NCBI RefSeq assembly: GCF_000355805.1
Contig: NZ_CM001837.1
Span: 1,826,155-1,890,154, forward strand
DNA from: Dokdonia sp. PRO95
GTDB lineage: Bacteria > Bacteroidota > Bacteroidia > Flavobacteriales > Flavobacteriaceae
Length of the DNA stretch: 64,000 bases
Direction of reading: 5' to 3'
The position numbers and the translations under genes were made by a program. This document shows positions 1,725 through 59,735 of the stretch, one piece after another. A model generated the notes under the pieces. That model saw only the letters and a list, made by a program, of their open reading frames with translations, was not told where the DNA came from and ran no database searches. Position 1 is the stretch's first letter; each line of letters opens with the position of its first letter.

Positions 1725-3683
1725 ATGACAAAGAATATTACGATACTTCTGCTACTTTTTTCTGTTTCTCTCTTTGCACAGAAAACATACAAAAACGCAG
1801 ATAAGCTATTTGAACAAATGCGCTATGTTGAAGCGGCAGCTGTTTATGAGAAAGCAATAGATAGAGGAGATAACTCTATGGTACTCCTGCAGAAAGCTGG
1901 AGATTCATATTACTTTAATACTAATATGGAGGAGGCTTATAAGTGGTATGATCTGCTTGTTAGTCAATATAGAGATGAAGTCGATGCTGAGTATTTATTT
2001 CGATTTGCACACTCACTTCAGGGTATTGGAGATTATAAAGCCGCAAAAAAATGGATGAAAGCTTTCGCGAAAGCATCATCTAAAAATGATAAACGTATTG
2101 ATGATTATGCTCAGAAAGAACGTACTCTGGCAGATGTGCTAGCGATTCCTGCGCAATTTGAGCTTAAAAACTTGTCAATAAATACAGCGTATTCAGATTT
2201 TGGACCTACATATTATGGATCTAAACTAGTATACTCATCTGCGGTAGATACATCTTATTATATAAAAAGAAGGTACCACTGGAATGACCAACCTTTTTTA
2301 GACTTCTATATAGGTCAAATAAATGCCGCCGAAAATGAAGTGAAGCGAGAGGATATTTTTTCGGACGTTATCAATACAAAGTATCATGAAGCCACTATAG
2401 CTTTCGCAAAAGATGGAAAACGTATATACTTTACGAGGAATAATTATGATGGTGATTTGAGAAGGGGAGAGGATGGAGTTAGTCATCTCAAATTATATAC
2501 TGCTAAGAGGAATGATAGTGTAGGAGCCAAAGATGATTGGCTAGATGTGCGCGAGTTACCTTTTAATAGCAGTGAGTATTCTACAGGTCACCCAGCACTT
2601 AGTGAAGATGGTACAAAGTTGTATTTTGTGTCAGACATGCCTGGGACTATAGGAGCAACAGATATTTTTGTAGTTGACATCTTGGGTGATAATAATTATT
2701 CTGCACCCCAAAACTTAGGTCCTAAAGTAAATACTTCTGGAAGAGAAATGTTTCCTTATATAGAAAATCAAGTAATGTATTTTGCTTCAGATGGACACTT
2801 AGGTGTTGGTGGGTTAGATGTTTTTGAGAGCGATATAGGTAACAATACTTTTTCAATTCCACGTAATTTGGGAAAACCACTCAATAGTCAGCTAGATGAT
2901 TTTGGTTTCATTATTAATGAGAGTGGAGAGCAAGGGTTTGTATGCTCAAACAGAGAAGGAGGAGTGGGTGACGATGATATTTATGCAATACAGCGTATTC
3001 CTTTAGAAGATGTTGTAAAGAATTGTAAGCAGCTAGTTAAAGGTTATGTCGTTAATAGCCGTACGCAGGAACGTATAGCGGATGCTACAGTTTCTTTGTA
3101 TGGGGAGAATGGAGTTAAACTTTCTGAAACCGTAAGTAAAAGTAATGGAGATTATGTTTTTAATTTTGACCTGGACTGTGCTGAGCAATATGATATAAAA
3201 GTGAACAAATTAGGATACACTCCTAATTCAAAAAATATTGTTACTTCTAGTATCTCCTCAGAAACTATAGTACCCCTAGATCTTGAGACGTTAAGCGAGC
3301 TCATTGTGGAAGATAGTGGTCAACTTAAAATTAAGGTTGGGATTATATTTTTTGACCTCGATAAGGACTACATACGTCCGGACGCTGCTATGGAGCTCAA
3401 CAAGATTGTAACACTGATGTCTCAGCAGCCATCTATGGAAATTAGAATTGAATCTCATACAGATGCTCGTGCAGATGATAGTTATAATATGGAGCTATCG
3501 CAACGAAGAGCAGTCTCAACTAAAAATTACCTGATAAGACAAGGGATAGCAAAAGAGAGAATACTGTCTGCTCAAGGTTTTGGAGAAACAAGATTACTTA
3601 ATGAATGTTCTAATGGAGTGCAATGTGATGAAGTACAACATCAAATAAATAGAAGGTCTGAGTTTATTATAGAGAAAATGTAA
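1725..3683 (+). CDS. OmpA-family protein with TPR, PD40 propeller and carboxypeptidase-regulatory-like domains (PorE-like)
   Basis: 652 aa with signal peptide (about 1-18, ending LFAQ). Domains in order: TPR-like helices (about 20-130), WD40-like PD40 beta-propeller repeats (about 150-425, e.g. GHPALSEDGTKLYFVSD), a carboxypeptidase-regulatory-like fold (about 435-520, GYVVNSRTQERIADATVSLYG) and an OmpA peptidoglycan-binding domain (about 535-650, IRIESHTDARADDSYNMELSQRRA). This order matches PorE-type proteins that tie the type IX machinery to peptidoglycan. It sits in the PorP/SprF operon. One copy of the 14-bp palindrome (2061-2074) encodes AFAKA in the TPR region. Whether it is the general PorE or a paralogue dedicated to this substrate is not clear. 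Confidence 0.9.
   Translation: MTKNITILLLLFSVSLFAQKTYKNADKLFEQMRYVEAAAVYEKAIDRGDNSMVLLQKAGDSYYFNTNMEEAYKWYDLLVSQYRDEVDAEYLFRFAHSLQGIGDYKAAKKWMKAFAKASSKNDKRIDDYAQKERTLADVLAIPAQFELKNLSINTAYSDFGPTYYGSKLVYSSAVDTSYYIKRRYHWNDQPFLDFYIGQINAAENEVKREDIFSDVINTKYHEATIAFAKDGKRIYFTRNNYDGDLRRGEDGVSHLKLYTAKRNDSVGAKDDWLDVRELPFNSSEYSTGHPALSEDGTKLYFVSDMPGTIGATDIFVVDILGDNNYSAPQNLGPKVNTSGREMFPYIENQVMYFASDGHLGVGGLDVFESDIGNNTFSIPRNLGKPLNSQLDDFGFIINESGEQGFVCSNREGGVGDDDIYAIQRIPLEDVVKNCKQLVKGYVVNSRTQERIADATVSLYGENGVKLSETVSKSNGDYVFNFDLDCAEQYDIKVNKLGYTPNSKNIVTSSISSETIVPLDLETLSELIVEDSGQLKIKVGIIFFDLDKDYIRPDAAMELNKIVTLMSQQPSMEIRIESHTDARADDSYNMELSQRRAVSTKNYLIRQGIAKERILSAQGFGETRLLNECSNGVQCDEVQHQINRRSEFIIEKM
2061..2074. repeat. 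GCTTTCGCGAAAGC palindrome, copy 1 (in OmpA-family gene)
   Basis: Perfect 14-bp palindrome inside the coding sequence, read as AFAKA in the context MKAFAKASS. It lies in the variable region after the TPR helices. Confidence 0.95.
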
Positions 3684-3720
3684 TTAATTAAAAACAGACG
3701 ATTACCTACAAAGTAAAAAA

Positions 3721-3749
3721 GCTCTCAATCTAGATTGAGAGCTTTTTTA
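3721..3749 (+). terminator. Rho-independent terminator after the PorP/OmpA operon
   Basis: An 11-bp perfect inverted repeat GCTCTCAATCT/AGATTGAGAGC is followed by TTTTTT, 37 bp after the OmpA-family stop codon. The A-run just upstream would also let it work on the minus strand. Confidence 0.9.
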
Positions 3750-4050
3750 TGCTTAATAACTAAATGAGATTTTTGAGATGTACTGGTGTTTTTGACGCTG
3801 AAAAACACGAGATATAGTACTGAAGAATTATTTTTTCACAATAATGAGGTGTTTCTATTAAAAAAGTATCAAGGTAGTAAGAAATTACAGCATACTTTCA
3901 TATACTTGCTATCTCAAAAGATTTCACAATAACGTGAAGTAATTATTTTGTGATAAAATTAGATGTATTTCATTCAAATTTTGGTGTAAGTACCTTGCTT
4001 TATAAATTACATACTAAATTAATTGTAATTAAAATAAGACGATGCTTTTC

Positions 4051-4058
4051 TATATTTG
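4051..4058 (+). promoter_or_regulatory. Putative -7 box for the exbB operon
   Basis: TATATTTG matches the Bacteroidota TAnnTTTG -7 consensus. The nearest TTG (4023-4025) is 25 nt upstream, longer than the usual 19-21 nt, so the -33 element is weak. The predicted leader is about 60 nt. Confidence 0.45.
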
Positions 4059-7310: not shown

Positions 7311-7328
7311 ACGCTTTCGCGAAAGCGT
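7311..7328. repeat. Palindrome copy 2, 18-bp form, between convergent genes
   Basis: ACGCTTTCGCGAAAGCGT is a perfect 18-bp palindrome beginning 5 bp after the porT-like stop and 14 bp from the stop of the convergent gene. There is no T-run, so it is not a classical terminator. Confidence 0.95.
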
Positions 7329-11094: not shown

Positions 11095-11898
11095 ATGAAA
11101 GAGCAGTTTCAAGATTACTTCAACACCAACAAGGAAACTTGGGAAAAGAAGGTTTCTGTCCACGCAGAGAGTAGCTTTTATGATATGCCAAGATTTTTGA
11201 ATGGTAAAAGTTCTCTCAATAGCTATGAGTTAGATGCGTTGGGAGATGTAAATGGTAAAAGTTTACTCCATCTTCAGTGTCATTTTGGACAAGATACTTT
11301 GAGTTGGGCAAGGATGGGTGCTTTGGCTACCGGGGTAGATATTAGTGAGGAGGCGATTACGCTTTCGCGAAAGCTAAACAAGCAACTAGGTTTGTCTGCT
11401 GAATTTGTGTGCTGTAATGTTCTAGATACTTCAAACCATGTTCATGAGCAATTTGATGTTGTTTTTACGAGTTATGGGGTGATAGGGTGGTTGCCAGATT
11501 TGAAACCTTGGGCGCTTATGATTGCACAGCGATTAAGAAGTGGAGGAACTTTTTATATAGTAGAGTTTCATCCCATTGTCTGGATGTTTGATTATACAGG
11601 AAATAAGCCAGTAATGAAATATGGTTATCATCAAGATGAACCAGTTTACGAAGAATATGAGGGGACTTACGCTCAACCTGATGCAGCTATAACAAGTAAA
11701 GAGTATGGATGGAATCATGGTTTAGGAGAGGTGGTCTCTGCCTTAATAGATGCGGGTCTTAAGATAGAATTTCTAAAAGAACACGATGCTTCTCCTTATG
11801 ATGTTCTTCCAGATTTAATTAAAAATGAAAATGGCCTTTACGAAAGTAAAGACCATTTATATCCATTAATTTTTGAGATAAAAGCTACTAAAGTTTAG
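11095..11898 (+). CDS. Class I SAM-dependent methyltransferase
   Basis: 267 aa from the ATG at 11095; an upstream extension to 11011 would run through the start of the divergent flavin reductase and is rejected. SAM-binding motif I appears as LLHLQCHFGQDTLSWARMGA followed by TGVDISEEAI, and motif IV-like FDVVFTSYGVIGWLPDL is visible. The substrate is unknown; such proteins are usually annotated only as class I methyltransferases. It overlaps the convergent msrA by 4 bp. Palindrome copy 3 encodes TLSRKL just after the acidic SAM-ribose residue region. Confidence 0.88.
   Translation: MKEQFQDYFNTNKETWEKKVSVHAESSFYDMPRFLNGKSSLNSYELDALGDVNGKSLLHLQCHFGQDTLSWARMGALATGVDISEEAITLSRKLNKQLGLSAEFVCCNVLDTSNHVHEQFDVVFTSYGVIGWLPDLKPWALMIAQRLRSGGTFYIVEFHPIVWMFDYTGNKPVMKYGYHQDEPVYEEYEGTYAQPDAAITSKEYGWNHGLGEVVSALIDAGLKIEFLKEHDASPYDVLPDLIKNENGLYESKDHLYPLIFEIKATKV
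11361..11374. repeat. Palindrome copy 3 (in methyltransferase gene)
   Basis: GCTTTCGCGAAAGC, read in the LSRK frame (ITLSRKLNK). Left-flanked by TTAC as in the longer form. Confidence 0.95.
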
Positions 11899-13544: not shown

Positions 13545-14639
13545 TTAAAAATAGTTGATAGGATTGGTATTTTCCTCAGATAAAATGATTGCAAAAGTAC
13601 TAATTTTTTCTGTAAGATAGTCGCATATTAAGTTTTTCGTATATCGTTCGCTTTCATAATGCCCTACATCGCATAAAAGAATGCTGCCTTCAGCTTGGTA
13701 ATAGTCGTGGTATTTTAAATCTGAAGTTACAAGCACATCGGCTCCTTGAGCTTTTGCACTTTTAATAGCAAAGGCTCCACTTCCTCCCAGTACGGCTATT
13801 TTTTTTATAGGTTTTCCTATTAATTGTGAGTGACGTATACCGCCTGTTTTGAATTGCGCTTTCGCGAAAGCTAAAAAATCCACCTCACTTATTTCTTTAT
13901 CAAGATTACCTATCATCCCCATGCCTACATTTTGCAACGTATTTTCTAGTGAAGTAATCTCATAGGCAACTTCTTCATAAGGGTGATTTTCAAAAAGAGT
14001 TTGTAAAATCTTAGACTTAAGGTGCTTTTCAAACGTAAGATGTAATTGTGTTTCTGGTTCAATATGTCTCGAGCCTCTTTGGCCTATTACAGGATTACAA
14101 TTGTCATTTCCTTTGAAAGAACCCCTACCTTCAACCTCAAAGCTGCACTCTTCATAATTACCTAAACTTCCTGCTCCCGCCGAAAACAAAGCATCGCTCA
14201 CACTTTTTACAGATGCGTGAGGAACGTAAGTGGTGAGTTTGTAAATATGATGCTGTTTAGGGATTAAAATCTTAGTGTTTGATAGATTGAGAGCTTTGCA
14301 CATTCCAAAGTTAACACCGTGCTCTACATTATCTAGCGCAGTGTGAATTGCAAAAATGGCAATATCATTTTTAATAGCCTTTTGAACCACTTTTTGCACA
14401 TAGTTACTTGCTGTGAGCCTTTTTAATCCTGAGAAAATAATAGGATGAAAGCATACAATGAGGTTGCAGTTTTTTGCAACAGCCTCATCAACTACATTTT
14501 CAAGTGCGTCATGTGAGACAAGAATATTGGTCACTTCTTGCAGAGGATCCCCTACAAGAAGACCAACGTTATCAAAATCTTCTGCATAGGCAAGTGGTGC
14601 CCATTCATTAATTATAGTACTTACATCTTTTACCTTCAT
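13545..14639 (-). CDS. NIF3-like dinuclear metal centre hexameric protein
   Basis: 364 aa, the long form with an inserted PII-like middle domain (about 130-230). N-terminal DFDNVGLLVGDP, metal-ligand region IVCFHPIIFSGLKRL and C-terminal DVLVTSDLKYHDY ... DVGHYESE are all present. Where many members have HHP the first His is Phe (CFHP), which I believe is common in this phylum. The family has been linked to GTP cyclohydrolase-like or regulatory roles, without a settled activity. It forms an operon with the coiled-coil protein and is divergent from lpxK. Palindrome copy 4 encodes AFAKA. Confidence 0.93.
   Translation of the reverse strand: MKVKDVSTIINEWAPLAYAEDFDNVGLLVGDPLQEVTNILVSHDALENVVDEAVAKNCNLIVCFHPIIFSGLKRLTASNYVQKVVQKAIKNDIAIFAIHTALDNVEHGVNFGMCKALNLSNTKILIPKQHHIYKLTTYVPHASVKSVSDALFSAGAGSLGNYEECSFEVEGRGSFKGNDNCNPVIGQRGSRHIEPETQLHLTFEKHLKSKILQTLFENHPYEEVAYEITSLENTLQNVGMGMIGNLDKEISEVDFLAFAKAQFKTGGIRHSQLIGKPIKKIAVLGGSGAFAIKSAKAQGADVLVTSDLKYHDYYQAEGSILLCDVGHYESERYTKNLICDYLTEKISTFAIILSEENTNPINYF
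13858..13871. repeat. Palindrome copy 4 (in NIF3-like gene)
   Basis: GCTTTCGCGAAAGC, read on the minus strand as AFAKA (FLAFAKAQF). Confidence 0.95.
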
Positions 14640-19897: not shown

Positions 19898-19915
19898 ACG
19901 CTTTCGCGAAAGCGT
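19898..19915. repeat. Palindrome copy 5, 18-bp form, after birA
   Basis: ACGCTTTCGCGAAAGCGT lies 4 bp downstream of the birA stop codon (minus strand) and upstream of the lipA promoter box. Confidence 0.95.
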
Positions 19916-25528: not shown

Positions 25529-25550
25529 CAAGAAAAATAACATAAATAAA

Positions 25551-25580
25551 AAGGCGTCTAAATAATTTTAGACGCCTTTT
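25551..25580. terminator. Bidirectional terminator between ACBP and valS
   Basis: Perfect 12-bp stem AAGGCGTCTAAA/TTTAGACGCCTT with loop TAAT, followed by a T-run on the plus strand; the A-run upstream serves the convergent valS. Confidence 0.92.
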
Positions 25581-25602: not shown

Positions 25603-28236
25603 TTAAGACAAACTAGCCAGTCGTTTTTCTAGCGCTTCTATTTTTGCTTCGGCATCTGCCATCTTTTGTTTTTCGATAGCGACTACCTTCTCTGGTGCGT
25701 TGCTTACAAAACGCTCATTAGATAGCTTTTTTGAAACCGACATTAAGAATCCTTTTGTGTATTTAAGTTCTTCCTCAATTTTTGCAACTTCGGCTTCTAC
25801 ATCAATAGCTCCCGCAAGAGGTATGAAGTACTCATTAGATTTTACTCTAAAAGATAGTGCTCCGTCTAGTGGCGCTTTCGCGAAAGCGATCTCACTCACA
25901 TTACCTAGTTTTGAGATGATACTATTGTAATCACTAGAAACTTCTTCATTGCTTAGAACGTGCACTTCTATAGCGTCTTTAAAAGCGATGTTTTTACTTT
26001 TTCTAATAGTTCGTATACCTGAAATCACTTGTGAGGCGTAGTCAAAATCTGCAATGATTTTTTCATTTAACGCACCACCTTCTGGCCATTTATTGATAAT
26101 CAAAGCCTCTTCTGGAGTACGCGTAGCGATAGTCTGCCAGATCTCTTCAGATGCAAATGGGATAAATGGGTGAAGTATGCGTAGGTTATTTTCAAAAGCT
26201 GCAATTACCGCGTCGTAGGTCTTGCGATCTATAGGTTGCTGGTATGCTGGTTTTATAATCTCTAGTAACCACCCGCAGAAGTCGTTCCATACCACTTTGT
26301 AACTCGCCATAAGTGCGTCTGAGATACGGTACTTTGAGAAGTGATCTTCTATCTCTAGAAGTGTTTGGTTAAAACGGTTTGTATACCACTCAATACCTTG
26401 CGCGCTATGTGCTGGTTGTGGTATAGTCTCGTCTATCTCCCATCCCTGTATGAGGCTAAAAGCGCTCAAGTTTTTCTTGATAAATCCTTTTCCTTGTTTA
26501 AGAAGATCTTCGTCAAACATAAGGTCGTTACCGGCAGCACTACTTAATAATAGTCCTACGCGCACACCATCTGCTCCATATTCTTTAATAAGTTCTAGTG
26601 CATCTGGTGAGTTACCTAGTGACTTAGACATCTTGCGACGCTGCTTGTCACGTACTAAACCTGTGAGGTAAACATTTTGGAAAGGTCTTTTGTCTGTGTA
26701 CTCATATCCCGCTATGATCATACGCGCTACCCAGAAGAATAAAATATCTGGTCCCGTTACAAGATCATTAGTAGGGTAGTAGTAGTTAAACTCCTCGTTA
26801 TCTGGATTGCGCACTCCGTCAAAAACACTCATAGGCCATAACCAAGAGCTGAACCAAGTGTCCATAGCATCTTCGTCTTGGCGTAAATCTTCGGCAGTGA
26901 GGGAGTCGTTTCCGGTACGCTTTCGCGAAAGCGTAACAGCATCCTCAATAGATTCGGCAACTACAAAATCTTCCTTTCCTTCTCCATAGAAGTAAGCAGG
27001 AATTTGCTGTCCCCACCATAGCTGGCGAGAGATGTTCCAGTCACGTATGTTCTCCATCCAGTGACGGTAGGTGTTTTCAAACTTCTTAGGAAATAACTTT
27101 ACATCTCCAGTTTCTAGTACGGCTTTTATGGCAGGCTTTACAAGCTCTTCCATTTTAAGGAACCACTGGTCTGATAGTCTAGGCTCTATTACCGCCTTTG
27201 TACGCTCAGATGTTCCTACTTTATTAACGTGGTTTTCTGTCTTTACTAGAGCACCTAGTTCTTCAAGTTCTTTTTTTATAGCCTTGCGCACTACAAAGCG
27301 ATCTTGACCTTCATAGTGAAGCCCAAAACTGTTAAGAGAAGCGTCATCATTAAAGATGTCTATTACTTCTAGCTTATGTTTGTCACCCAGCATCTTGTCA
27401 TTCTCATCGTGTGCTGGTGTTACCTTAAGGCAACCTGTACCAAACTCAAGATCTACATACTCATCTTCTATAATAGGAATCACGCGCCCACTTATAGGTA
27501 CAATGGCTTTCTTTCCTTTAAGATGTGTGAATCGCTCGTCATTTGGGTTAATACAAATCGCTGTATCGCCAAAAATAGTCTCTGGTCTCGTAGTCGCTAT
27601 TGTTAATAACTCCTCAGATCCTTCTAGTTTATAATTTATGTAATAGAGTAAGCCTTGTCGCTCTTCGTGTATTACCTCCTCGTCAGAGAGGGTTGTTTTT
27701 GCTTCTGGATCCCAGTTTACCATACGGTAACCGCGATATATCAATCCTTTATTATAAAGATCTACAAATGTTTTTATAACAGACTCAGACATTGCTGGAT
27801 CCATAGTAAAAGCTGTGCGCTCCCAGTCGCAAGAGGCTCCTAGTTTTTTAAGTTGGTCAAGTATAACGCCGCCATATTCTTCTTTCCATTCCCAGGCGTG
27901 GGCAAGAAATTCCTCACGAGTAAGGTCAGATTTTTTGATGCCTTGATCTTTAAGTCTGGCAACTACCTTTGCCTCTGTAGCAATAGATGCGTGGTCTGTA
28001 CCAGGTACCCAGCACGCATTTTTACCTAGTAATCTTGCACGACGTATTAATACGTCTTGTATCGTGTTGTTAAGCATATGTCCCATATGTAAGACACCTG
28101 TCACGTTAGGAGGTGGGATTACAATGGTGTATGGTTCTCTATCATCTGGTGTAGAATGGAAATAATTATGCTCCATCCAGTAGCTGTACCACTTATCTTC
28201 TACCTGTGTAGAATCATATTTTGACGCTATGCTCAT
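25603..28236 (-). CDS. valS: Valyl-tRNA synthetase
   Basis: 877 aa class Ia synthetase. HIGH-equivalent HMGH is at 50-53 and KMSKS at 535-539. The editing domain (about 210-345, TTRPETIFGDTAI) and the C-terminal coiled-coil arm (KIEEELKYTKGFL ... IEALEKRLASLS) are present. It charges tRNA-Val and hydrolyses misacylated Thr-tRNA. Unusually, it carries two palindrome copies in different frames: LSRKR at 436-440 and AFAKA at 784-788, both in poorly conserved loops. A -7-like TACTTTTG lies on the minus strand at 28267-28274, 30 nt upstream of the ATG. Confidence 0.98.
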   Translation of the reverse strand: MSIASKYDSTQVEDKWYSYWMEHNYFHSTPDDREPYTIVIPPPNVTGVLHMGHMLNNTIQDVLIRRARLLGKNACWVPGTDHASIATEAKVVARLKDQGIKKSDLTREEFLAHAWEWKEEYGGVILDQLKKLGASCDWERTAFTMDPAMSESVIKTFVDLYNKGLIYRGYRMVNWDPEAKTTLSDEEVIHEERQGLLYYINYKLEGSEELLTIATTRPETIFGDTAICINPNDERFTHLKGKKAIVPISGRVIPIIEDEYVDLEFGTGCLKVTPAHDENDKMLGDKHKLEVIDIFNDDASLNSFGLHYEGQDRFVVRKAIKKELEELGALVKTENHVNKVGTSERTKAVIEPRLSDQWFLKMEELVKPAIKAVLETGDVKLFPKKFENTYRHWMENIRDWNISRQLWWGQQIPAYFYGEGKEDFVVAESIEDAVTLSRKRTGNDSLTAEDLRQDEDAMDTWFSSWLWPMSVFDGVRNPDNEEFNYYYPTNDLVTGPDILFFWVARMIIAGYEYTDKRPFQNVYLTGLVRDKQRRKMSKSLGNSPDALELIKEYGADGVRVGLLLSSAAGNDLMFDEDLLKQGKGFIKKNLSAFSLIQGWEIDETIPQPAHSAQGIEWYTNRFNQTLLEIEDHFSKYRISDALMASYKVVWNDFCGWLLEIIKPAYQQPIDRKTYDAVIAAFENNLRILHPFIPFASEEIWQTIATRTPEEALIINKWPEGGALNEKIIADFDYASQVISGIRTIRKSKNIAFKDAIEVHVLSNEEVSSDYNSIISKLGNVSEIAFAKAPLDGALSFRVKSNEYFIPLAGAIDVEAEVAKIEEELKYTKGFLMSVSKKLSNERFVSNAPEKVVAIEKQKMADAEAKIEALEKRLASLS
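25874..25887. repeat. Palindrome copy 6 (in valS, AFAKA frame)
   Basis: GCTTTCGCGAAAGC, minus-strand reading EIAFAKAPL at residues 784-788 of ValS, between the anticodon-binding region and the coiled-coil arm. Confidence 0.95.
26917..26934. repeat. Palindrome copy 7, 18-bp form (in valS, LSRK frame)
   Basis: ACGCTTTCGCGAAAGCGT, minus-strand reading VTLSRKRTG near residues 435-440, in a loop of the catalytic domain insert. Confidence 0.95.
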
Positions 28237-28857: not shown

Positions 28858-28871
28858 GCTTTCGCGAAAGC
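28858..28871. repeat. Palindrome copy 8 (intergenic)
   Basis: GCTTTCGCGAAAGC directly after the DUF1573 terminator, 67 bp before the aminotransferase start. Confidence 0.95.
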
Positions 28872-31149: not shown

Positions 31150-31165
31150 ACGCTTTCGCGAAAGC
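31150..31165. repeat. Palindrome copy 9, after murB
   Basis: The core GCTTTCGCGAAAGC at 31152-31165 is preceded by AC, starting 3 bp after the murB stop codon. An A-run follows that belongs to the convergent terminator. Confidence 0.95.
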
Positions 31166-33444: not shown

Positions 33445-34560
33445 TTGGAACAAATCTTTACACTACTTTTTTATATATTTATAGGAGTCACGTTTATTAA
33501 CGTGACTTTTTATGTTTTCTATTGGTTATTCGCTTTCGCGAAAATATCTAATACCAATACAAGTTCGTTTCCTCCAGTTTCGGTAATTATTTGTGCCAAA
33601 AACGAGTCGGCAAATCTCCAGAAAAACATTCCAAAAATATTATCTCAAGACTATCCAGAATTTGAAGTTATTTTAATTAATGACGCATCTTCTGATGATA
33701 CAGAAGATATTATGGAAGCATTTAAACTGGCCAATGTAAATGTACAGCAAGTAAATGTGGTGAATAATGAGACTTTCTGGGGTAATAAAAAATACGCACT
33801 CACCCTTGGTATAAAACGAGCACAGCATAAGCATATGTTATTTACAGATGCAGATTGTGTTCCAGCATCAGACCAATGGTTACAGCACATGGCTTCTTCT
33901 TTTAATGAGGATAAGGAAATAGTGCTAGGTTATGGTGCTTATGAAAAAATTAAAGGGTCTTGGGTTAATAAGCTTATAAGATTTGAAACATTGATGACTG
34001 CTTTACAATATTTTAGTTGGGCAAAAGCAGGAAGACCATACATGGGCGTAGGACGCAATCTAGCCTATACGTCTGATGTTTTTTATGAGCAAAAGGGATT
34101 TATTAACCATATTAAAATTCAAAGTGGTGATGATGACCTGTTTGTAAACGAAGCCAGTACACGTAAGAATACTGCTATCCAGTTTTCTCCAGAATCATTC
34201 ACAATTTCTACTCCTAAGAAGACCTTTGCGAGCTGGATCACTCAGAAGCGTAGACACATAAGCACTGCGGTACATTATAAGTTTTTAGAGAAATCACTGC
34301 TAGCCCTTTTTTATATTAGTCAGTGTTTGTTTTTGGTAGGAGCGGTTGCTCTTCTTGTGATTCAGTTTAACTGGGAGTGGGTAGCGCTCATTATTGGTGT
34401 ACGTTATGTATGTGCATGGATTACCGTAGGTTGTAGTGCTGCGCGTTTACAAGAAAAAGATCTCACCTATTTGTACCCCATTTATGAGATAGCGTTAGTA
34501 TGTGTGCAAATGAGTATCTTTATCTGTAACCTTATTACAAAACCAACACGGTGGAAGTAA
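33445..34560 (+). CDS. Family 2 glycosyltransferase, membrane-bound
   Basis: 371 aa from a TTG start. An N-terminal membrane helix, the GT-A catalytic domain with VSVIICAKNESANL, DDTEDI-type LINDASSDDTE, metal-binding FTDADC and the QKRRH motif (QxxRW-like position), then C-terminal membrane helices (about 283-365). It probably transfers a sugar from a nucleotide donor to a membrane acceptor or polymer; the product is unknown. A terminator-like hairpin (33486-33511) and a degenerate palindrome (33532-33544) lie in the first 100 nt of the gene. It overlaps the downstream sigma gene by 10 bp. Confidence 0.9.
   Translation: MEQIFTLLFYIFIGVTFINVTFYVFYWLFAFAKISNTNTSSFPPVSVIICAKNESANLQKNIPKILSQDYPEFEVILINDASSDDTEDIMEAFKLANVNVQQVNVVNNETFWGNKKYALTLGIKRAQHKHMLFTDADCVPASDQWLQHMASSFNEDKEIVLGYGAYEKIKGSWVNKLIRFETLMTALQYFSWAKAGRPYMGVGRNLAYTSDVFYEQKGFINHIKIQSGDDDLFVNEASTRKNTAIQFSPESFTISTPKKTFASWITQKRRHISTAVHYKFLEKSLLALFYISQCLFLVGAVALLVIQFNWEWVALIIGVRYVCAWITVGCSAARLQEKDLTYLYPIYEIALVCVQMSIFICNLITKPTRWK
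33486..33511 (+). terminator. Terminator-like hairpin inside the 5' end of the GT2 gene
   Basis: Perfect 9-bp stem AGTCACGTT/AACGTGACT, loop TATT, followed by TTTTT, 41 nt inside the GT2 coding sequence and 54 nt after the stop of the small Cys-rich gene. It could end the short transcript and so limit GT2/sigma/Nramp expression. Confidence 0.55.
33532..33544. repeat. Degenerate palindrome (in GT2 gene)
   Basis: GCTTTCGCGAAAA: left arm and centre intact, right arm lost its GC. It reads AFAK in LFAFAKIS, so it is probably a decayed copy of the AFAKA form. Confidence 0.7.
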
Positions 34561-35120: not shown

Positions 35121-36352
35121 AAGCCGTACCCTTTAAAAAGTTAGGCCCAGGATTATTATTTGCTGGTGCGGCTATTGGTGTTTCTCACCTTGTACAAAGC
35201 ACTAGAGCAGGCGCCGATTTTGGTTTTGGTCTACTGTGGGCTTTAATCCTCGTTAACATTATTAAGTATCCCTTCTTTCAATTTGGTCCTAGGTATGCTT
35301 CGGCAACGGGCAATAGTTTACTAGTGGGGTATATGAAACTTGGAAAACCTGTTTTATGGGTGTATTTCTTTTTGACACTGGCTACCATGTTTACCATTCA
35401 GACAGCAGTTACTATTGTAACGGCGGGAATTGCTGTTCAGCTGTTTGGAATTACTAGTGATGTAGCGATATGGAGTGTTGCTATTACAATGCTCTGTGCG
35501 ACTATTTTGGCGATAGGTAAATATAGGATACTCGATAAATTAATGAAAGTGATTATTATCACACTTACTATAAGTACGCTTGTGGCAGTCTTTTTTGCTT
35601 TTCGCGAAAGCGTAATTAATCAAGGGATGGGAACTCCTGCAAACTTGCTTCAAATTATACCAACCGAAGGGGCGGCTGTGGCATTTTTGATTGCTTTTAT
35701 GGGGTGGATGCCAGCGCCACTTGATATTTCGATATGGCACTCACTGTGGACATTAGAAAAAAGAGATTCAGGTAAGGATGGAATGCGCAATTCAATTTTT
35801 GATTTTAATGTTGGGTATGCTGGCGCGGTTGTGCTGGGTATTTGTTTTATGACCTTAGGAGCATTAGTCATGTTTGGTAGCGGAGAGACATTTTCTCCTA
35901 AGGGAGGTGTTTTTGCTGGACAACTTATCAATATGTATACGGCCAGTCTGGGAGACTGGGCAACCTTGCTTATAGGGATTGCTGCATTTACAACAATGTT
36001 TAGCACTACGCTTACTACATTAGACGCGTCTCCTAGAGCGCTTGAGGCTACAACCTCATTATTAGGTTTTGGTTTTAAGAAACGAGGATACTTATTTTAT
36101 TTAATAATCTTAATTCTTGGAACCTGCGGGATACTATTTTTTTTAATAAGCGAGATGGGAGCTCTCGTAAAACTCGCGACAATTTTATCTTTTCTAACTG
36201 CTCCATTTTATGCCATTTGTAACTATTTATCATTGAGAGATGAAACCATTCCCGAAGATGCGAGGCTCTCTAAAGGAATGAATTTGCTCAGTATTGTGAG
36301 TATAATTGCTTTGTTAGGCTTCAGTATCTGGTATGTTGTTACATTGATTTAA
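35117..36352 (+). CDS. Nramp-family transporter with altered metal-binding motifs
   Basis: 411 aa from a TTG start overlapping the sigma stop (TTGA), about 11 membrane helices. The fold and the LGPGLLFAG start fit Nramp (MntH) metal transporters, but the first-helix DPGN motif reads AIGVS and the sixth-helix MPH motif reads MPAPLDIS. So the canonical Mn/Fe ligand set is missing, and the substrate may be Mg, another ion or something else. The last gene of the operon. A near-palindrome with one extra T lies at 35597-35611, encoding FRESV. Confidence 0.88.
   Translation: MKAVPFKKLGPGLLFAGAAIGVSHLVQSTRAGADFGFGLLWALILVNIIKYPFFQFGPRYASATGNSLLVGYMKLGKPVLWVYFFLTLATMFTIQTAVTIVTAGIAVQLFGITSDVAIWSVAITMLCATILAIGKYRILDKLMKVIIITLTISTLVAVFFAFRESVINQGMGTPANLLQIIPTEGAAVAFLIAFMGWMPAPLDISIWHSLWTLEKRDSGKDGMRNSIFDFNVGYAGAVVLGICFMTLGALVMFGSGETFSPKGGVFAGQLINMYTASLGDWATLLIGIAAFTTMFSTTLTTLDASPRALEATTSLLGFGFKKRGYLFYLIILILGTCGILFFLISEMGALVKLATILSFLTAPFYAICNYLSLRDETIPEDARLSKGMNLLSIVSIIALLGFSIWYVVTLI
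35597..35611. repeat. Near-palindrome (in Nramp-like gene)
   Basis: GCTTTTCGCGAAAGC: the 14-bp core with one extra T in the left arm, followed by GT. Reads AFRESV, the FRES frame. Confidence 0.75.
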
Positions 36353-40680: not shown

Positions 40681-40698
40681 ACGCTTTCGCGAAAGCGT
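40681..40698. repeat. Palindrome copy 10, 18-bp form, upstream of dnaB
   Basis: ACGCTTTCGCGAAAGCGT, flanked by T and A so that the symmetry reaches 20 bp. It ends 20 bp upstream of the -7-like box of dnaB, in the promoter region. Confidence 0.95.
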
Positions 40699-44414: not shown

Positions 44415-45674
44415 ATGAAGAAACTACTTATATTATCCTTTTTGATAATGAATTTCGCTTTCGCGAAAGCGTCATATATCCTCATTCCGATGGATGTAGA
44501 GTCACAAAGGGAGCATCTTAAAGCTTATGGAATCACGTACTGGTCACTTGATAAAAACCAAAAAGTAAAATGGTTGCTTAACTATAGAGGCGGCTCTTTC
44601 TTGCTACCAGATACCGAAGACGTACGGCGCGAGTGTACCATACGTGGTGTCTCTTATGAAGTATTATCAGACGGACAAACGGAGCAAATTCTAACAGAAA
44701 TAGCAAGTCCATCTCAGAATATGGAAGCAATTGTATTAGAAAAAGCACCAAAAATTGCTGTTTACACACCAGACAGTAAGGTGCCTTGGGATGATGCCGT
44801 AACCATGGTGCTTACCTATGCAGAGATACCTTATACTACGATTTACGATACAGAAGTACTGAGTGATCAACTTATTTTATATGACTGGTTACACTTACAT
44901 CACGAGGATTTTACTGGGCAGTTTGGAAAATTTTATGGTTCTTATCGTGCCTCGCCTTGGTACATAGAAGAGAAAAAAGCTGCCGAGGCACTTGCGGCCC
45001 AATTAGGTTACAATAAGGTATCAAAGGAAAAAGGAGATGTTGCTCTGAAGATACGTGACTATGTTGTGGGTGGAGGTTTTATGTTTGCCATGTGTAGTGC
45101 AACAGATAGCTTTGATATTGCCCTCTCTGCCGAGGGAGTAGATATTTGCGAACCAATGTTTGACGGAGATCCTAGCGAACCAGGATATACTTCAAAAATA
45201 GATTTTCAAAAAACATTTGCTTTTAAAAATTATACGCTAGAACGTTCTCCTACTACCTATGAGTTTTCGTCTATTGATATGACACGCAAGCGTAAGATTC
45301 CTTTTCAAACAGACTATTTTACCTTAAAAGATTATAGTGCAAAATGGGATCCTATCCCTACGATGCTTTGTCAAAATCATACGGCACTTGTAAAAGGGTT
45401 TATGGGACAGACTACGAGTTATGATCCTGAGACTATAAAATCTAATGTGCTAGTCATGGGAGAAAATCTCACAAATGGTGAAGCGAGATACATTCACGGG
45501 ATTAAAGGAAAAGGATTTTTTACCTTTTATGGAGGGCACGATCCAGAAGATTATCAGCATAGAGTAGGTGATCCTAAGACAGAGTTAGAACTACATCCTA
45601 ACTCACCTGGTTATCGTTTGATTTTAAATAACGTACTGTTTCCAGCAGCACGCAAGAAGAAACAAAAAACCTAA
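44415..45674 (+). CDS. Secreted protein of unknown function (glutamine-amidotransferase-like fold suspected)
   Basis: 419 aa from ATG 44415; a longer frame from 44376 begins inside the terminator T-run and is rejected. Signal peptide MKKLLILSFLIMNFAFAKA, whose AxA end is encoded by palindrome copy 11. The mature part has IAVYTPDSKVPWDDAVTMVLTYAEIPY and GGGFMFAMCSATDSFDIALSAEG, which recall ThuA/class I glutamine-amidotransferase-like folds with a Cys after a small-residue elbow, but no full catalytic triad is recognised. It is followed 6 bp later by a DUF922 protease. Related proteins seem to have been labelled asparagine synthetase B in some annotations, which the sequence does not support. 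Confidence 0.75.
   Translation: MKKLLILSFLIMNFAFAKASYILIPMDVESQREHLKAYGITYWSLDKNQKVKWLLNYRGGSFLLPDTEDVRRECTIRGVSYEVLSDGQTEQILTEIASPSQNMEAIVLEKAPKIAVYTPDSKVPWDDAVTMVLTYAEIPYTTIYDTEVLSDQLILYDWLHLHHEDFTGQFGKFYGSYRASPWYIEEKKAAEALAAQLGYNKVSKEKGDVALKIRDYVVGGGFMFAMCSATDSFDIALSAEGVDICEPMFDGDPSEPGYTSKIDFQKTFAFKNYTLERSPTTYEFSSIDMTRKRKIPFQTDYFTLKDYSAKWDPIPTMLCQNHTALVKGFMGQTTSYDPETIKSNVLVMGENLTNGEARYIHGIKGKGFFTFYGGHDPEDYQHRVGDPKTELELHPNSPGYRLILNNVLFPAARKKKQKT
44457..44470. repeat. Palindrome copy 11 (encoding the signal peptide end)
   Basis: GCTTTCGCGAAAGC, read as AFAKA within FAFAKAS; supplies the probable AKA signal peptidase I site. Confidence 0.95.
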
Positions 45675-46949: not shown

Positions 46950-46967
46950 ACGCTTTCGCGAAAGCGT
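46950..46967. repeat. Palindrome copy 12, 18-bp form, in the DUF2911/asnB divergent gap
   Basis: ACGCTTTCGCGAAAGCGT with T and A flanks extending the symmetry to 20 bp; 113 bp upstream of the DUF2911 start and 128 bp upstream of asnB. Confidence 0.95.
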
Positions 46968-50035: not shown

Positions 50036-51199
50036 TTATGTAGTAACGTATTCCTTTAAATCAGAAGTTAAGATATCTGTGAGTTCGCGCTCATTACCAA
50101 GGCTCGTTTCTGTAAAAATAAATCCAAATACAGGATAGCTATGTATATCCAGAGGTCTTACTAGTACTGGTTTTTCAAACTTTGTAGCTATCTTTTTGTA
50201 GTCAAAACTTTTGATGCTTTCGGCAGGGATACCCGTACTATTGTCTAGTATAATTATGCTAAAGACTTTATCCTCCTTGCCTTTAAATATGTGGTCCCAG
50301 TTAGGTTTTTTGCTTTCGCGAAAGCATACATAAGAATTAAAATCTAAGGTAACACCAAGTGAGTCACCCGTAGTACAAAATCCTCCAAAACGCAGCGGAT
50401 TAACCTCAATAGGAGTTATTTTTCCAGAAGCATCGATGCGTATCTCTGCATGCGCAGGAAAATTCTTGAGTTGTAATTCTTGTCCTAACGCACTTAAGAA
50501 TTCATGTATGGCAGCACTATATGTGGTGATAGTATCTTTTGAGGTGCAATAAACGCGATCGCTAGTATCTTTGCCAGAAGAGAATAGGTGGTGTAAAATG
50601 TTTAAAATTACAACCTCACCATTTGCATTGTGATAGTAATCTATAGCAAATTCTTCTCCTTGAATAAATTCTTCAATAATAAAATATGTGGTGTCCAGCA
50701 CATTTTTAGGAAAGATGCTTTTGAGCTTCTCTGGGTGTAATTCCTTCTTTGCCTGTTTCCAATCATGTTGATCGTGGATGATATGAACTCCTATGCTGAA
50801 AAAGCCAACACTAGGTTTAATAACAAAAGGGAATTTTAATGTTTCGGCATCTAGAAGATGGACATCAGTTAGAGAAAGCTTTTGAAAATAAAAGTCTGGA
50901 AACAAGCTTTTAGTAAGCTCTCTAAATTGGACTTTGTCTTTTAAAATATTTATTTGACGAGCAAGTGTGCTATCTCCTAGGTGCTCTTCTATCCATACCA
51001 GCGCGTTTTCTGAGTTTGAATATAATGCTGTTTCTGGATTATCGTTATAGATAGCTACCGCATCCTGCTCCTCTATCCAGTTGAGCGTGTCATCTTGAAT
51101 AATGGACTTTGCAATTGGAGTGGCAATAATGGGGTAGTTATTTTCTTTTATAGTTGCAATAAGAAAATCTGAAGCAAAGGGCTTGTCTATTAAAAACAT
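50036..51199 (-). CDS. ATP-grasp domain protein
   Basis: 387 aa. ATP-grasp features: KFPFVIKPSVGFFSIGVHII (glycine-rich loop and first Lys), YFIIEEFIQGEEFAIDYYHNANGEVVILNIL (second ATP-binding strand) and EIRIDASGKITPIEVNPLRFGGFC (metal site). It probably ligates a carboxylate to an amine or thiol, as in peptide or carnosine-type ligases; the substrate is unknown. Palindrome copy 13 reads FRES near the C-terminal part. The MarC gene lies 30 bp upstream in the same orientation. Confidence 0.88.
   Translation of the reverse strand: MFLIDKPFASDFLIATIKENNYPIIATPIAKSIIQDDTLNWIEEQDAVAIYNDNPETALYSNSENALVWIEEHLGDSTLARQINILKDKVQFRELTKSLFPDFYFQKLSLTDVHLLDAETLKFPFVIKPSVGFFSIGVHIIHDQHDWKQAKKELHPEKLKSIFPKNVLDTTYFIIEEFIQGEEFAIDYYHNANGEVVILNILHHLFSSGKDTSDRVYCTSKDTITTYSAAIHEFLSALGQELQLKNFPAHAEIRIDASGKITPIEVNPLRFGGFCTTGDSLGVTLDFNSYVCFRESKKPNWDHIFKGKEDKVFSIIILDNSTGIPAESIKSFDYKKIATKFEKPVLVRPLDIHSYPVFGFIFTETSLGNERELTDILTSDLKEYVTT
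50312..50325. repeat. Palindrome copy 13 (in ATP-grasp gene)
   Basis: GCTTTCGCGAAAGC, minus-strand reading CFRESKKP; the FRES frame. Confidence 0.95.
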
Positions 51200-52046: not shown

Positions 52047-52760
52047 ATGGCTATAAAATCATCTACAGACGCTGCTTCCTATATTTCTATAAAAAATTGG
52101 TCTGAAGATGATAGGCCACGAGAGAAACTAATGGTAAAGGGACGTTCTGTATTATCTGATGCAGAGTTAATCGCTATTTTAATAAGTTCTGGTTCTAGAG
52201 AGGAAAGCGCAGTCTCACTAAGTAAACGCATTCTCTCCCAAGCCGAGAATAATCTTTCGGAGCTGGGTAAGTTTTCGGTAAAAGATTTAATGAAATTTAA
52301 AGGAATAGGAGAGGCAAAGGCCGTTACTATCGCTGCTGCGCTAGAACTAGGGAGAAGGAGAAGTGGTGGAGAGACGCTTTCGCGAAAGCGTATTTCTTCC
52401 TCAAAAGATGCTTATCAAATTTTACAACCCATCATAGGAGAGTTAGGGCACGAGGAATTCTGGGTGCTTTTTCTAAACAATTCAAACAAGGTACTACGCA
52501 AAGAGCAAGTGAGTAAAGGCGGACTCACGGGAACACTAGTAGATGTAAGGCTAGTAATGAAAACCGCCATAGAACTTAGTGCTGTGGGAATGATTTTAGG
52601 GCACAATCACCCTTCTGGAACCCTTAAACCATCACAAGCAGATAAGCTACTTACTGCCAAACTGAAAACGGCTGCGCAGAGTCTAGATATCCAAGTCTTA
52701 GACCATATTATTGTGACCGAAAAACAGTATTTTAGCTTTGCCGATGACGGCATTCTATAA
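52047..52760 (+). CDS. radC: RadC family JAB-domain protein
   Basis: 237 aa. N-terminal helix-hairpin-helix (about 25-95, LMKFKGIGEAKAVTIAAALEL) and C-terminal JAB/MPN domain with the metal motif HNHPSG and a downstream His-Asp (DHIIVTE). Historically called a DNA repair protein; real activity is unclear. Palindrome copy 14 encodes LSRKRISS exactly in the linker between the two domains. Followed after 14 bp by the deacetylase-like gene, so probably an operon with it and YjjG. Confidence 0.95.
   Translation: MAIKSSTDAASYISIKNWSEDDRPREKLMVKGRSVLSDAELIAILISSGSREESAVSLSKRILSQAENNLSELGKFSVKDLMKFKGIGEAKAVTIAAALELGRRRSGGETLSRKRISSSKDAYQILQPIIGELGHEEFWVLFLNNSNKVLRKEQVSKGGLTGTLVDVRLVMKTAIELSAVGMILGHNHPSGTLKPSQADKLLTAKLKTAAQSLDIQVLDHIIVTEKQYFSFADDGIL
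52374..52391. repeat. Palindrome copy 14, 18-bp form (in radC)
   Basis: ACGCTTTCGCGAAAGCGT, reading ETLSRKRIS in the RadC interdomain linker. Confidence 0.95.
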
Positions 52761-58880: not shown

Positions 58881-58884
58881 AGTA

Positions 58885-58892
58885 CAAAAATA
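58885..58892 (-). promoter_or_regulatory. -7 box 4 nt before the rarA start
   Basis: Minus-strand TATTTTTG is a perfect TAnnTTTG match 4 nt upstream of the ATG. No -33 TTG at 19-21 nt. Confidence 0.45.
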
Positions 58893-58979
58893 GCTATTTT
58901 GTTAAGGTCTTTAGTGACAATATTACATCTACTTCGACTATGGGCGTTAATTTGTAGTTAAAGAGATAAGCACATTCTT

Positions 58980-59735
58980 ATGAACAAAGAAGCAGATTAT
59001 TTTAAGTTTTATAATGGGGTAGTAGTATTCCCATTATTCTTTGTTCTCTTAATGTGGGGAGTATTCTGGGTAGAGATAAAGTTTGGTTTAGACTTTACTA
59101 AGTGGGGAGTGAGACCACGTACGGCAACGGGAATAAAAGGTGTGATTTTCTCACCATTTATTCATTCTGGAATCAAACATTTATGGCACAATACCGTACC
59201 ATTACTCGTGCTTAGTGCCGCCTTGTTCTATTTTTATAGGAAAATTTCTTGGCGTGTTCTTTTACTTCTTGTCATATTGAGCGGCACAGGTACTTGGCTA
59301 ATAGGTCGGGACTCATACCATATCGGAATGAGCGGAGTGATATATGCGCTAGTTTCTTTTCTCTTCTTTAAAGGGATCCTAGCAAAGCACTTTCGACTTA
59401 TTGCACTATCATTAATAGTTGTATTTCTTTATGGTAGTCTCATATGGGGAACACTTCCCACTAGTGAGACTATATCTTGGGAAGGGCATTTATCTGGATT
59501 TATAGCTGGAGGATTGATTGCGTTATGCTTTCGCGAAAGCGTACCAAAACCAGTTACATATAATTGGGAGCAACCTGATTATTCTTCAGATGATGATCCA
59601 TTCATGCAGCAGTTTGATGAAAATGGAAACTTCTTTGAACTGCCTCCAGAAATTGATCAAGATGAAGGAGCGGAAACTATTGTGATAAGTTATGAGTACA
59701 AAGATCCTAAAACACCGGAAAAAGGTAGTTTATGA
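58980..59735 (+). CDS. Rhomboid family intramembrane serine protease
   Basis: 251 aa with about six membrane helices. Catalytic Ser118 in GMSGVIYAL, His170 in WEGHLSGFIAGG and the oxyanion-loop HLWHN (H70, N71) are present. It cleaves single-pass membrane proteins within the membrane; substrates are unknown. The acidic C-terminal tail (about 190-251) is soluble. Palindrome copy 15 reads LCFRESVPK right after the last helix. Convergent with rlmB, overlapping by 6 bp. Confidence 0.93.
   Translation: MNKEADYFKFYNGVVVFPLFFVLLMWGVFWVEIKFGLDFTKWGVRPRTATGIKGVIFSPFIHSGIKHLWHNTVPLLVLSAALFYFYRKISWRVLLLLVILSGTGTWLIGRDSYHIGMSGVIYALVSFLFFKGILAKHFRLIALSLIVVFLYGSLIWGTLPTSETISWEGHLSGFIAGGLIALCFRESVPKPVTYNWEQPDYSSDDDPFMQQFDENGNFFELPPEIDQDEGAETIVISYEYKDPKTPEKGSL
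59527..59540. repeat. Palindrome copy 15 (in rhomboid gene)
   Basis: GCTTTCGCGAAAGC, reading CFRES at the end of the last membrane helix; FRES frame. Confidence 0.95.

What the first reader, a model, noticed from the sequence alone, without database searches (positions are those of the whole stretch)
2061..59540. Fifteen copies of the 14-bp palindrome GCTTTCGCGAAAGC in 64 kb
Perfect copies start at 2061, 7313, 11361, 13858, 19900, 25874, 26919, 28858, 31152, 40683, 44457, 46952, 50312, 52376 and 59527, plus decayed copies at 33532 and 35597. Several extend to 18-20 bp (TACGCTTTCGCGAAAGCGTA). A random 14-mer is expected far less than once here. Nine copies lie inside genes and use all three frames (AFAKA, LSRK, FRES), so protein selection did not create them. 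The TTTC-GC-GAAA arms recall parS/Noc-type sites and HIP1-like iterated palindromes. The site may bind a nucleoid, segregation, repair or modification protein, or be spread by an insertion mechanism.
Basis: partly seen in the sequence, partly recalled or inferred. Interest (0 to 1): 0.78.

Follow-up and report, generated by a model that had tools for sequence, protein, structure and literature searches.

The report
Genome-wide iterated palindrome in Dokdonia
A marine bacterium carries nearly 800 exact, evenly spaced copies of one 14-letter palindromic DNA word that natural selection keeps in place, most likely as a recognition signal for a DNA-handling protein (perhaps for exchanging DNA between cells); the protein that reads it is still unknown.

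Summary
All 15 perfect copies are where stated. The 3.31-Mb genome (Dokdonia) has 794 exact copies, 80 one-mismatch copies and no reversed control. Hundreds occur in all 18 genus genomes searched and in two other genera; every other family genome searched has 0-19. Copies are evenly spaced with an exclusion zone of about 1 kb, use all frames and gene orientations, and are kept in place in relatives: 56 of 62 aligned copies against 3-31% of random 14-mers. Half-sites do not covary, which points to a double-stranded protein site, not a hairpin. No support was found for RAYT mobility, a Noc-type ParB, or a shared C5 or N6/N4 methyltransferase. Best reading: a maintained DNA-exchange signal resembling Neisseria/Haemophilus uptake sequences. 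The reader protein was not found, uptake was not testable, and chromosome-organising and Chi-like readings stay open.

The parts
2061..2074 (.). core palindrome, in OmpA-family gene (frame 0, AFAKA)
   Evidence: kept in 2 of 2 aligned relatives
7313..7326 (.). core palindrome, intergenic (18-bp palindrome)
   Evidence: kept in 5 of 5 aligned relatives
11361..11374 (.). core palindrome, in gene (frame 2)
   Evidence: kept in 4 of 5, substituted in G004
13858..13871 (.). core palindrome, in NIF3-like gene, frame 0
   Evidence: kept in 3 of 5, substituted in G016 and G003
19900..19913 (.). core palindrome, intergenic (20-bp palindrome from 19897)
   Evidence: kept in 5 of 5
25874..25887 (.). core palindrome, in the valyl-tRNA synthetase gene, frame 0
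   Evidence: kept in 4 of 5
26919..26932 (.). core palindrome, in the valyl-tRNA synthetase gene, frame 2 (20-bp palindrome from 26916)
   Evidence: kept in all 13 other Dokdonia genomes aligned and in G027 of another genus; absent from the 4 of 4 aligned motif-free or motif-poor genera
28858..28871 (.). core palindrome, intergenic
   Evidence: kept in 3 of 5, one mismatch in G004 and G008
31152..31165 (.). core palindrome, intergenic, near the right end of a recombination tract
   Evidence: kept in 2 of 2 aligned
33532..33545 (.). alternative form GCTTTCGCGAAA-AT
   Evidence: orthologous position is a perfect copy in G003, G016, G004, G011, G010, G017, G013
35598..35611 (.). one-armed form CTTTTCGCGAAAGC
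   Evidence: the same one-armed form is kept in 7 of 9 aligned relatives
40683..40696 (.). core palindrome, intergenic by my gene call, or inside a GTG-started ORF at 40672 (20-bp palindrome)
   Evidence: kept in 5 of 5
44457..44470 (.). core palindrome, intergenic by my gene call, or inside a GTG-started ORF at 44376
   Evidence: kept in 5 of 5
46952..46965 (.). core palindrome, intergenic (20-bp palindrome)
   Evidence: kept in 5 of 5 although flanks are only 63-64% identical in three of them
50312..50325 (.). core palindrome, in ATP-grasp gene, frame 1
   Evidence: kept in 2 of 2 aligned
52376..52389 (.). core palindrome, in radC, frame 2 (18-bp palindrome)
   Evidence: kept in 3 of 3 aligned
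59527..59540 (.). core palindrome, in rhomboid gene, frame 1
   Evidence: kept in 3 of 3 aligned
26899..26952 (.). example span of the full site of about 54 bp: core plus about 20 nt on each side that is, on average over copies, C-poor on the strand running 5' into the core
   Evidence: flank statistics over all sampled copies, (not tested on this single copy)

Best explanation
GCTTTCGCGAAAGC is the core of a site of about 54 bp with two-fold symmetry: a C-poor 5' flank of 16-20 nt, then a T-T-A-C-like step, the core, and the mirror image. It is read on double-stranded DNA, probably by a dimeric protein. Dokdonia genomes hold 369-905 copies and two further flavobacterial genera 408-664. SHOWN here: the excess, exactness and lineage limits; even spacing with a 1-kb exclusion (Dokdonia and g11); intergenic preference; positional conservation; loss by substitution rather than by excision; a symmetric flank rule without left/right covariation (Dokdonia; the flank rule also in g11); presence in some phage contigs. 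INFERRED: it marks a lineage's own DNA for exchange, as the uptake sequences of Neisseria and Haemophilus do. DNA carrying a site would be preferentially taken up or recombined. One site per few kb is then enough, a second within 1 kb gains nothing, and DNA that circulates in these hosts, prophages included, acquires sites. The G/T-rich strand running 3'-ward into the core from each side would suit RecA loading; that last step is speculation.
For: Exact maintenance: 794 exact against 80 one-mismatch copies. Even spacing: CV 0.67 against 0.99 for random over the first 100 copies of the genome and 0.62 over the first 67 listed copies of G016; 2 and 2 gaps under 1 kb where 20 and 16 are expected. 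Variance/mean 0.26 over 20 stretches of 20 kb. Pooled over three sets, 2 gaps under 1 kb against 36 expected, and the chance of a next site rises with distance. Permissive placement: 53 of 98 copies in the 11% intergenic DNA, all gene orientations. Conservation: 56 of 62. These resemble what PMC2397512 reports for Neisseria uptake sequences (abstract and passages read): spacing close to exchanged-fragment length, about 65% outside genes, highly conserved in permissive places. The Flavobacteriaceae transformation locus (a DUF5689 protein plus an outer-membrane protein with a carboxypeptidase-regulatory domain, essential in Riemerella: PMC8459023, passages including part of the abstract) is present in the window's genome. 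A tract of about 7 kb at 24.45-31.2 kb is 93-99% identical to G016 (500-bp bins; edges read), while all but one of the other bins are 64-91%. So recombination between species occurs; the tract carries four copies.
Against: The reader protein was not found. DUF5689 is equally present in motif-free relatives (41 of 41 genomes). Its tree (36 of 41 rows) and those of its neighbours (19 rows each) do not clearly set the motif-rich genera apart: 5, 3, 3 and 4 changes, with one origin not ruled out for the membrane partner. The DUF5689 protein also differs strongly even within these genera. So the known transformation locus does not explain which genera have the word. I saw no report that Dokdonia is naturally competent (in one search only 20 of 1,271 papers were listed, and none of those 20 names Dokdonia). 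Sites are not clearly concentrated in high-identity bins: G016 4 of 10 sites in 15 of 86 bins, G006 5 of 15 in 24 of 128, G008 3 of 14 in 16 of 117, G004 0 of 11 in 0 of 96. Phage contigs carry the word, which free transformation explains less directly. In the 5.5-Mb genome G010, 19 of 20 sampled stretches have 2-5 copies, so it is not simply missing from extra DNA. Even spacing would also suit a Chi-like or chromosome-organising site.
Confidence: 0.45

Rival explanations
1. Chromosome-organising site: a lineage-specific nucleoid or segregation protein binds the palindromes at regular intervals to fold or tether the chromosome.
For: Dyad symmetry, a long footprint, even spacing. Counts of 2-6 in 20 stretches round the chromosome, with no gradient evident (not tested formally). 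Spread also through most of 20 stretches of a 5.5-Mb genome.
Against: Classical candidates are not special: 22 of 26 genomes have a single ParB-domain gene and the four with more are not the motif-rich ones as a group (only G010 is). Presence in several phage contigs is not expected. No other family genus searched has the word in comparable number.
Confidence: 0.2
2. Palindromic, two-way Chi-like recombination signal: a helicase-nuclease stops at it, and RecA loads on the G/T-rich 3' strand lying 5' of the core.
For: The flank rule has the polarity expected: G/T-rich on the strand leading 5' into the core from both sides, in genes and between genes, in Dokdonia relatives and g11. Even spacing. 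RecA's GT preference and 'Chi islands' were seen only as titles in a reference list and in the opening of one abstract.
Against: Known Chi sites are short and asymmetric and read as single strands (recalled); nothing requires a palindrome. The E. coli Chi islands were themselves attributed to codon usage (title only). AddAB/RecBCD genes were not searched.
Confidence: 0.15
3. Self-marker: a host nuclease or defence system spares DNA that carries the site at intervals, so phages of these hosts acquire it.
For: Seventeen viral contigs chosen for their copies hold 1-7 each and follow the flank rule, more weakly than the host (C 8-14% at 5-20 nt). Proteins of some match portal, terminase, head and tape-measure families. 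In one phage family the 5 near-identical contigs have 2-3 copies each in the DNA held, while the 30 more distant relatives have 0.
Against: The contigs were found through the word itself, so density is biased, and several are near-duplicates. No such defence system was looked for. The same data fit exchange of prophage DNA; one contig has a CI-like repressor and an integration-type transposase.
Confidence: 0.1
4. HIP1-like word created or kept by an orphan DNA methyltransferase and repair.
For: Works like HIP1: iterated palindrome, lineage-specific, kept exact. 7 of 9 one-mismatch copies in the 464-kb sample deviate at the outer two positions of an arm, as HIP1's one-letter deviations lie at its ends (abstract of PMC4390886). 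The window's own genome does have a C5 methyltransferase gene.
Against: No C5 methyltransferase (PF00145) in 7 of 13 motif-rich genomes and no N6/N4 methyltransferase (PF01555) above cut-off in 11 of 13; G003, G004, G006, G010, G013 and G655 have neither above cut-off. The inner TCGCGA is neither favoured nor avoided outside the site: 24 against 27 expected. Other methyltransferase families were not tested.
Confidence: 0.07
5. Mobile palindrome (REP or MITE-like) spread by insertion.
For: Many copies, intergenic excess. RAYT-family genes exist in the three g11 genomes.
Against: No RAYT in 8 of 9 Dokdonia genomes or in G607, and many in motif-free G023 (14). Very few decayed copies; 1-kb exclusion. 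Alleles without the word are substituted words of the same length.
Confidence: 0.03

Closest known systems
DNA uptake sequences (Neisseria DUS; Pasteurellaceae USS)
   Same: Hundreds to thousands of exact copies, lineage-specific, conserved in place, mostly outside genes, spacing on a length scale (PMC2397512 abstract and passages; this work)
   Different: Perfect 14-bp palindrome with long symmetric C-poor flanks; Bacteroidota; about one per 4.2 kb instead of about 1.1-1.5 kb; no uptake receptor identified; uptake bias untested
HIP1 of cyanobacteria
   Same: Highly iterated palindrome of unknown function kept at genome scale
   Different: 14 bp instead of 8; site extends to about 54 bp; no shared C5 or N6/N4 methyltransferase in motif-rich genomes
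Chi sites
   Same: Similar density as recalled for E. coli; G/T-rich DNA on the 5' side
   Different: Palindromic, longer, two-way; enzyme not tested
parS / Noc / SlmA / MatP sites
   Same: Palindromic protein sites with TTTC-like arms (Noc, parS; recalled)
   Different: Core spacing 2 not 4; about 800 copies rather than tens; no extra ParB-type gene linked to the motif
REP elements with RAYT transposases
   Same: Hundreds of palindromic, mostly intergenic copies
   Different: No RAYT in 8 of 9 Dokdonia genomes nor in G607; inside genes in all frames; no insertion footprints in the sites examined

Membership tests
DNA uptake sequence (DUS/USS) | Short word in great excess, exact, lineage-specific | tested here: met
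DNA uptake sequence (DUS/USS) | Even spacing on a length scale of exchanged fragments | tested here: inconclusive
   Even spacing and a 1-kb exclusion shown; fragment lengths not measured beyond one 7-kb tract
DNA uptake sequence (DUS/USS) | Permissive placement and strong conservation in place | tested here: met
DNA uptake sequence (DUS/USS) | Exchanged tracts enriched in the word | tested here: inconclusive
   4 of 10 sites in 15 of 86 high-identity bins for G016, 5 of 15 in 24 of 128 for G006, 3 of 14 in 16 of 117 for G008, 0 of 11 in 0 of 96 for G004
DNA uptake sequence (DUS/USS) | Rare in newly acquired DNA | tested here: inconclusive
   One stretch of 20 kb in G010 with efflux and copper-oxidase genes has none, but the other 19 stretches have copies, and phage contigs do too
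DNA uptake sequence (DUS/USS) | DNA with the word is preferentially taken up | not testable with these tools
   needs a transformation assay
DNA uptake sequence (DUS/USS) | Transformation machinery present | tested here: met
   DUF5689 and its outer-membrane partner as in Riemerella; but DUF5689 is equally present in motif-free relatives; ComEC, DprA and ComF were not searched
HIP1-like | Matching orphan methyltransferase in genomes that have the word | tested here: not met
   for PF00145 and PF01555 only
REP/RAYT | Cognate RAYT transposase in the genome | tested here: not met
   absent from 8 of 9 Dokdonia genomes and from G607; present in the three g11 genomes
Noc/parS | ParB-family reader beyond the chromosomal ParB, and TTTC-N4-GAAA geometry | tested here: not met
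   geometry from the sequence (parS/Noc geometry recalled)
Chi | Recognised by RecBCD or AddAB | not testable with these tools
   no enzyme assay; gene presence not searched
Hairpin (terminator, REP) | Compensating changes in the two arms beyond the core | tested here: not met
   pairing at 1-10 nt outside the core is not above the expectation from column frequencies beyond small differences, in 45 coding and 53 intergenic copies

The most novel reading that the evidence does not exclude
A DNA-exchange signal of a new design in the Bacteroidota: a two-way symmetric site of about 54 bp (palindromic core plus C-poor, G/T-rich flanks leading into it from both sides) that couples recognition of kin DNA to recombination, kept in three genera and adopted by their phages, and read by a protein of no known uptake-sequence receptor family.
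Probability: 0.33. Interest if true: 0.88.

Novelty: new variant of a known kind. Interest (0 to 1): 0.78.

Why it matters
Genome-wide signal words are few (uptake sequences, Chi, KOPS, HIP1), and uptake sequences are, as far as I recall, described from Neisseriaceae and Pasteurellaceae. A strongly maintained word of this kind in cultured marine flavobacteria gives a clean system: 14 fixed letters, a flank rule, a length scale, motif-rich and motif-free relatives, and phage contigs that carry it. The word may also serve at once as a tracer of DNA that came from these genera.

Tried and rejected
Protein selection as the cause: rejected. 53 of 98 sampled copies are intergenic, the 45 coding copies use frames 0/1/2 as 23/10/12, and orthologues without the word align to it with other letters. 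The excess of frame 0 (AFAKA) fits an easily tolerated peptide; 5 of the 45 lie within the first 40 codons.

Hairpin or terminator: rejected. No covariation outside the core. Convergent gaps have 10 copies in 6.9 kb against 43 in 42.4 kb of the other gaps, a small difference (my count from the rows).

REP/RAYT, Noc-type ParB, C5 methyltransferase and N6/N4 methyltransferase: none follows the motif.

DUF5689 protein or its membrane partner as a motif-specific reader: no support. One search used 36 of 41 genomes, and some rows were fragments or wrong frames with very long branches (G028, G453, G746), so that tree is rough.

Independent origin in Dokdonia and g11: my first tree put G027 apart, but G027 is a long branch, and a tree holding it with Dokdonia is not rejected (p 0.576). 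So one origin is possible. A ValRS site is shared by both at the same place. G607 was not placed.

Copies in motif-poor genera: I read 12 copies in G186, G029, G422 and G359. By my reading of the translations, without a family search, those of G186 and three of the four read in G029 lie in heavy-metal efflux (CusABC-like) genes, the rest in other genes or between genes. A pair 933 bp apart recurs in G186, G529, G506, G629 and G515; only that of G186 was read. I take these as transferred DNA, not as local use of the word; this is an inference.

Search for other iterated 12-mers in 120 flavobacterial loci of 5-23 kb (top four per locus listed) showed no second palindrome of this kind.

Print: no paper held has the 14-mer; ten hold TTTCGCGAAA, and none of their titles or abstract openings concerns this word. 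The listings for Dokdonia + palindrom, uptake sequence + Bacteroidetes, highly iterated palindrome, Krokinobacter/Dokdonia repeats, and Dokdonia with competence terms show nothing on it. Passages of PMC4390886, PMC3587595 and PMC5217627 do not mention it. Subscription journals are mostly not held.


Full report
THE OBSERVATION. The window lies in a 3,305,093-bp single-contig genome with 794 exact copies, 874 at up to one mismatch, and none of the reversed control. The genus is Dokdonia: the valyl-tRNA synthetase of the window is 100% identical to that of a Dokdonia MAG, and one genome of the same genus, G016, has the exact length published for D. donghaensis DSW-1.

WHERE IT OCCURS. All 18 genomes of the genus searched have 369-905 copies; the lowest two are 78-85% complete. 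Of 397 family genomes, 79 have at least one copy, but only 6 have more than 100: two Dokdonia, three of genus g11 (578, 664, 609) and one of genus g366 (408); the next highest has 19. Of 394 genomes drawn from the phylum, 22 have a copy, and none but the window's own has more than 6. Of 12 copies read in four motif-poor genera, several lie in metal-efflux genes that look transferred (my reading of the translations).

THE SITE. In 464 kb sampled from the genome (14%; 20 stretches plus the window) 98 copies were read. The 8-mer TTCGCGAA occurs 137 times, and only 2 of these lie outside TTTCGCGAAA. Opposite a GC arm the second arm is GC 98 times, AT 20 times and anything else 16 times. Outside the core each half prefers T-T-A-C. 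Then comes a stretch where C falls from 19% to 5-10% for 16-20 nt on the strand running 5' into the core, on both sides. This holds in genes and between genes, in Dokdonia relatives (101 copies, C 7-13%) and in g11 (40 copies, C 3-9%); in g11 the T-T-A-C step is looser, and for g366 only 2 copies were read. Left and right flanks do not covary beyond column frequencies. So the site looks like double-stranded DNA read by a symmetric protein, not a hairpin.

SPACING. Over the first 100 copies of the genome (the listing stops there) gaps have CV 0.67 against 0.99 for random placement, and 2 gaps are under 1 kb where 20 are expected; in G016 the 67 copies listed give 0.62, and 2 against 16. Counts per 20 kb have variance/mean 0.26 (P 0.00045 against Poisson). 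With censoring, three sets (own genome outside that stretch, g11, other Dokdonia) give 2 gaps under 1 kb against 36 expected. The hazard of a next copy rises from 0.01 to about 0.65 per kb (some stretches are orthologous and not independent). The AT form obeys the same exclusion: 0 of 20 within 500 bp of a perfect copy, 2 of 20 within 1 kb, where 21% and 42% are expected.

PLACEMENT AND CONSERVATION. By a simple gene caller 53 of 98 copies lie in the 11% of DNA between genes, in all four gene orientations; 45 in genes use all frames. For the window's 15 sites, five relatives with 75-88% aligned identity keep the exact 14-mer in 10 of 11, 10 of 11, 14 of 14, 9 of 12 and 13 of 14 aligned places (56 of 62; 13 site-relative pairs did not align). 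Random 14-mers are kept in 3-31%. The six lost copies are substituted words of the same length; distant outgroups need only small compensating gaps within genes. The ValRS site at 26919 is present in all 14 Dokdonia genomes compared there, the window's own included, and at the same place in G027 of genus g11. It is absent from the four motif-free or motif-poor genera that aligned. A single origin for Dokdonia and g11 is not rejected.

WHO READS IT. I tested candidate readers on 13 motif-rich and 13 motif-poor or motif-free genomes. RAYT-family transposases are absent from 8 of 9 Dokdonia genomes and from G607, but present in the three g11 genomes and in several motif-free ones. ParB-domain genes: one copy in 22 of 26, two or three in G010, G034, G186 and G529. 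C5 methyltransferases are absent from 7 of 13 motif-rich genomes, though the window's own has one, and N6/N4 methyltransferases above cut-off occur in 2 of 13. The flavobacterial transformation locus known from Riemerella (PMC8459023, passages) is present: an outer-membrane protein of 924 aa with a carboxypeptidase-regulatory domain, a DUF5689 protein, and two flanking Exo_endo_phos_3 proteins. But DUF5689 is in all 41 genomes tried, with and without the word, and the trees show no clear motif-linked group.

PHAGES AND RECOMBINATION. The 66 copies read in high-GC hits lack the flank rule and look like chance words. Seventeen contigs of 36-47% GC chosen for their copies hold 1-7 each in full length (several are near-duplicates) and follow the flank rule more weakly than the host (39 copies, C 8-14%). 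Proteins from them match portal, terminase, head and tape-measure families, and one contig has a repressor and an integration-type transposase. In one family the five near-identical contigs carry 2-3 copies in the DNA held and the 30 more distant relatives carry none. Separately, own and G016 share a tract of 93-99% identity at 24.45-31.2 kb, while other bins are 64-91% but for one at 97%: evidence of recombination between species. Sites were not clearly concentrated in high-identity bins: 4 of 10 sites in 15 of 86 bins for G016, 5 of 15 in 24 of 128 for G006, 3 of 14 in 16 of 117 for G008, 0 of 11 in 0 of 96 for G004.

JUDGEMENT. That this is a selectively maintained, sequence-specific site of a DNA-binding protein is, in my view, close to certain. 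The whole pattern (exact, even, self-excluding, permissive, conserved in place) is that of uptake sequences as described for Neisseria (PMC2397512 abstract and passages), so I put DNA exchange first at 0.45. A chromosome organiser (0.2), a two-way Chi-like signal (0.15) and a self-marker (0.1) remain.

Noticed in passing
window 24450-31220: Sharp-edged tract 93-99% identical to D. donghaensis-like G016 inside DNA that is otherwise mostly 64-91% identical: recombination between species, carrying four copies of the word.
   Followed up: partly
window 3714-3749: 36-bp perfect palindrome between two genes (after the OmpA-family gene ending at 3683); looks like a two-way terminator.
   Followed up: no
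L291:6804-13283 and the same locus in L292-L310: DUF5689 protein and outer-membrane partner of the Riemerella transformation locus sit between two Exo_endo_phos_3 proteins in Dokdonia; at least one homologue of these was found in each of the 20 stretches compared (partial in L299), which suggests that they belong to the uptake machinery.
   Followed up: partly
L221:11232, 12165; L222:2919, 6910; L223; L224: Copies of the word in motif-poor genera lie largely in CusABC-like metal-efflux genes (my reading of the translations); a pair 933 bp apart recurs in five genomes, a possible tracer of DNA from a motif-rich donor.
   Followed up: partly
L166, L333, L334, L119, L200 and others (viral contigs): Phage contigs carrying 2-7 copies; some with GC 0.46-0.47 point to a further, unidentified motif-rich host.
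   Followed up: partly
genera g263 (G504, G700) and g238 (G479): Intermediate counts of 16, 19 and 17 copies: could be transferred DNA, an early stage, or a remnant of the system.
   Followed up: no
L005 and L020: GAGTGTCTTTAA is repeated 5 and 3 times in about 22 kb in two different genera: possibly another iterated element.
   Followed up: no
L371 (G010): The only one of 20 sampled stretches of G010 contig C21 without a copy holds RND efflux, TonB receptor and multicopper oxidase genes, perhaps acquired.
   Followed up: partly
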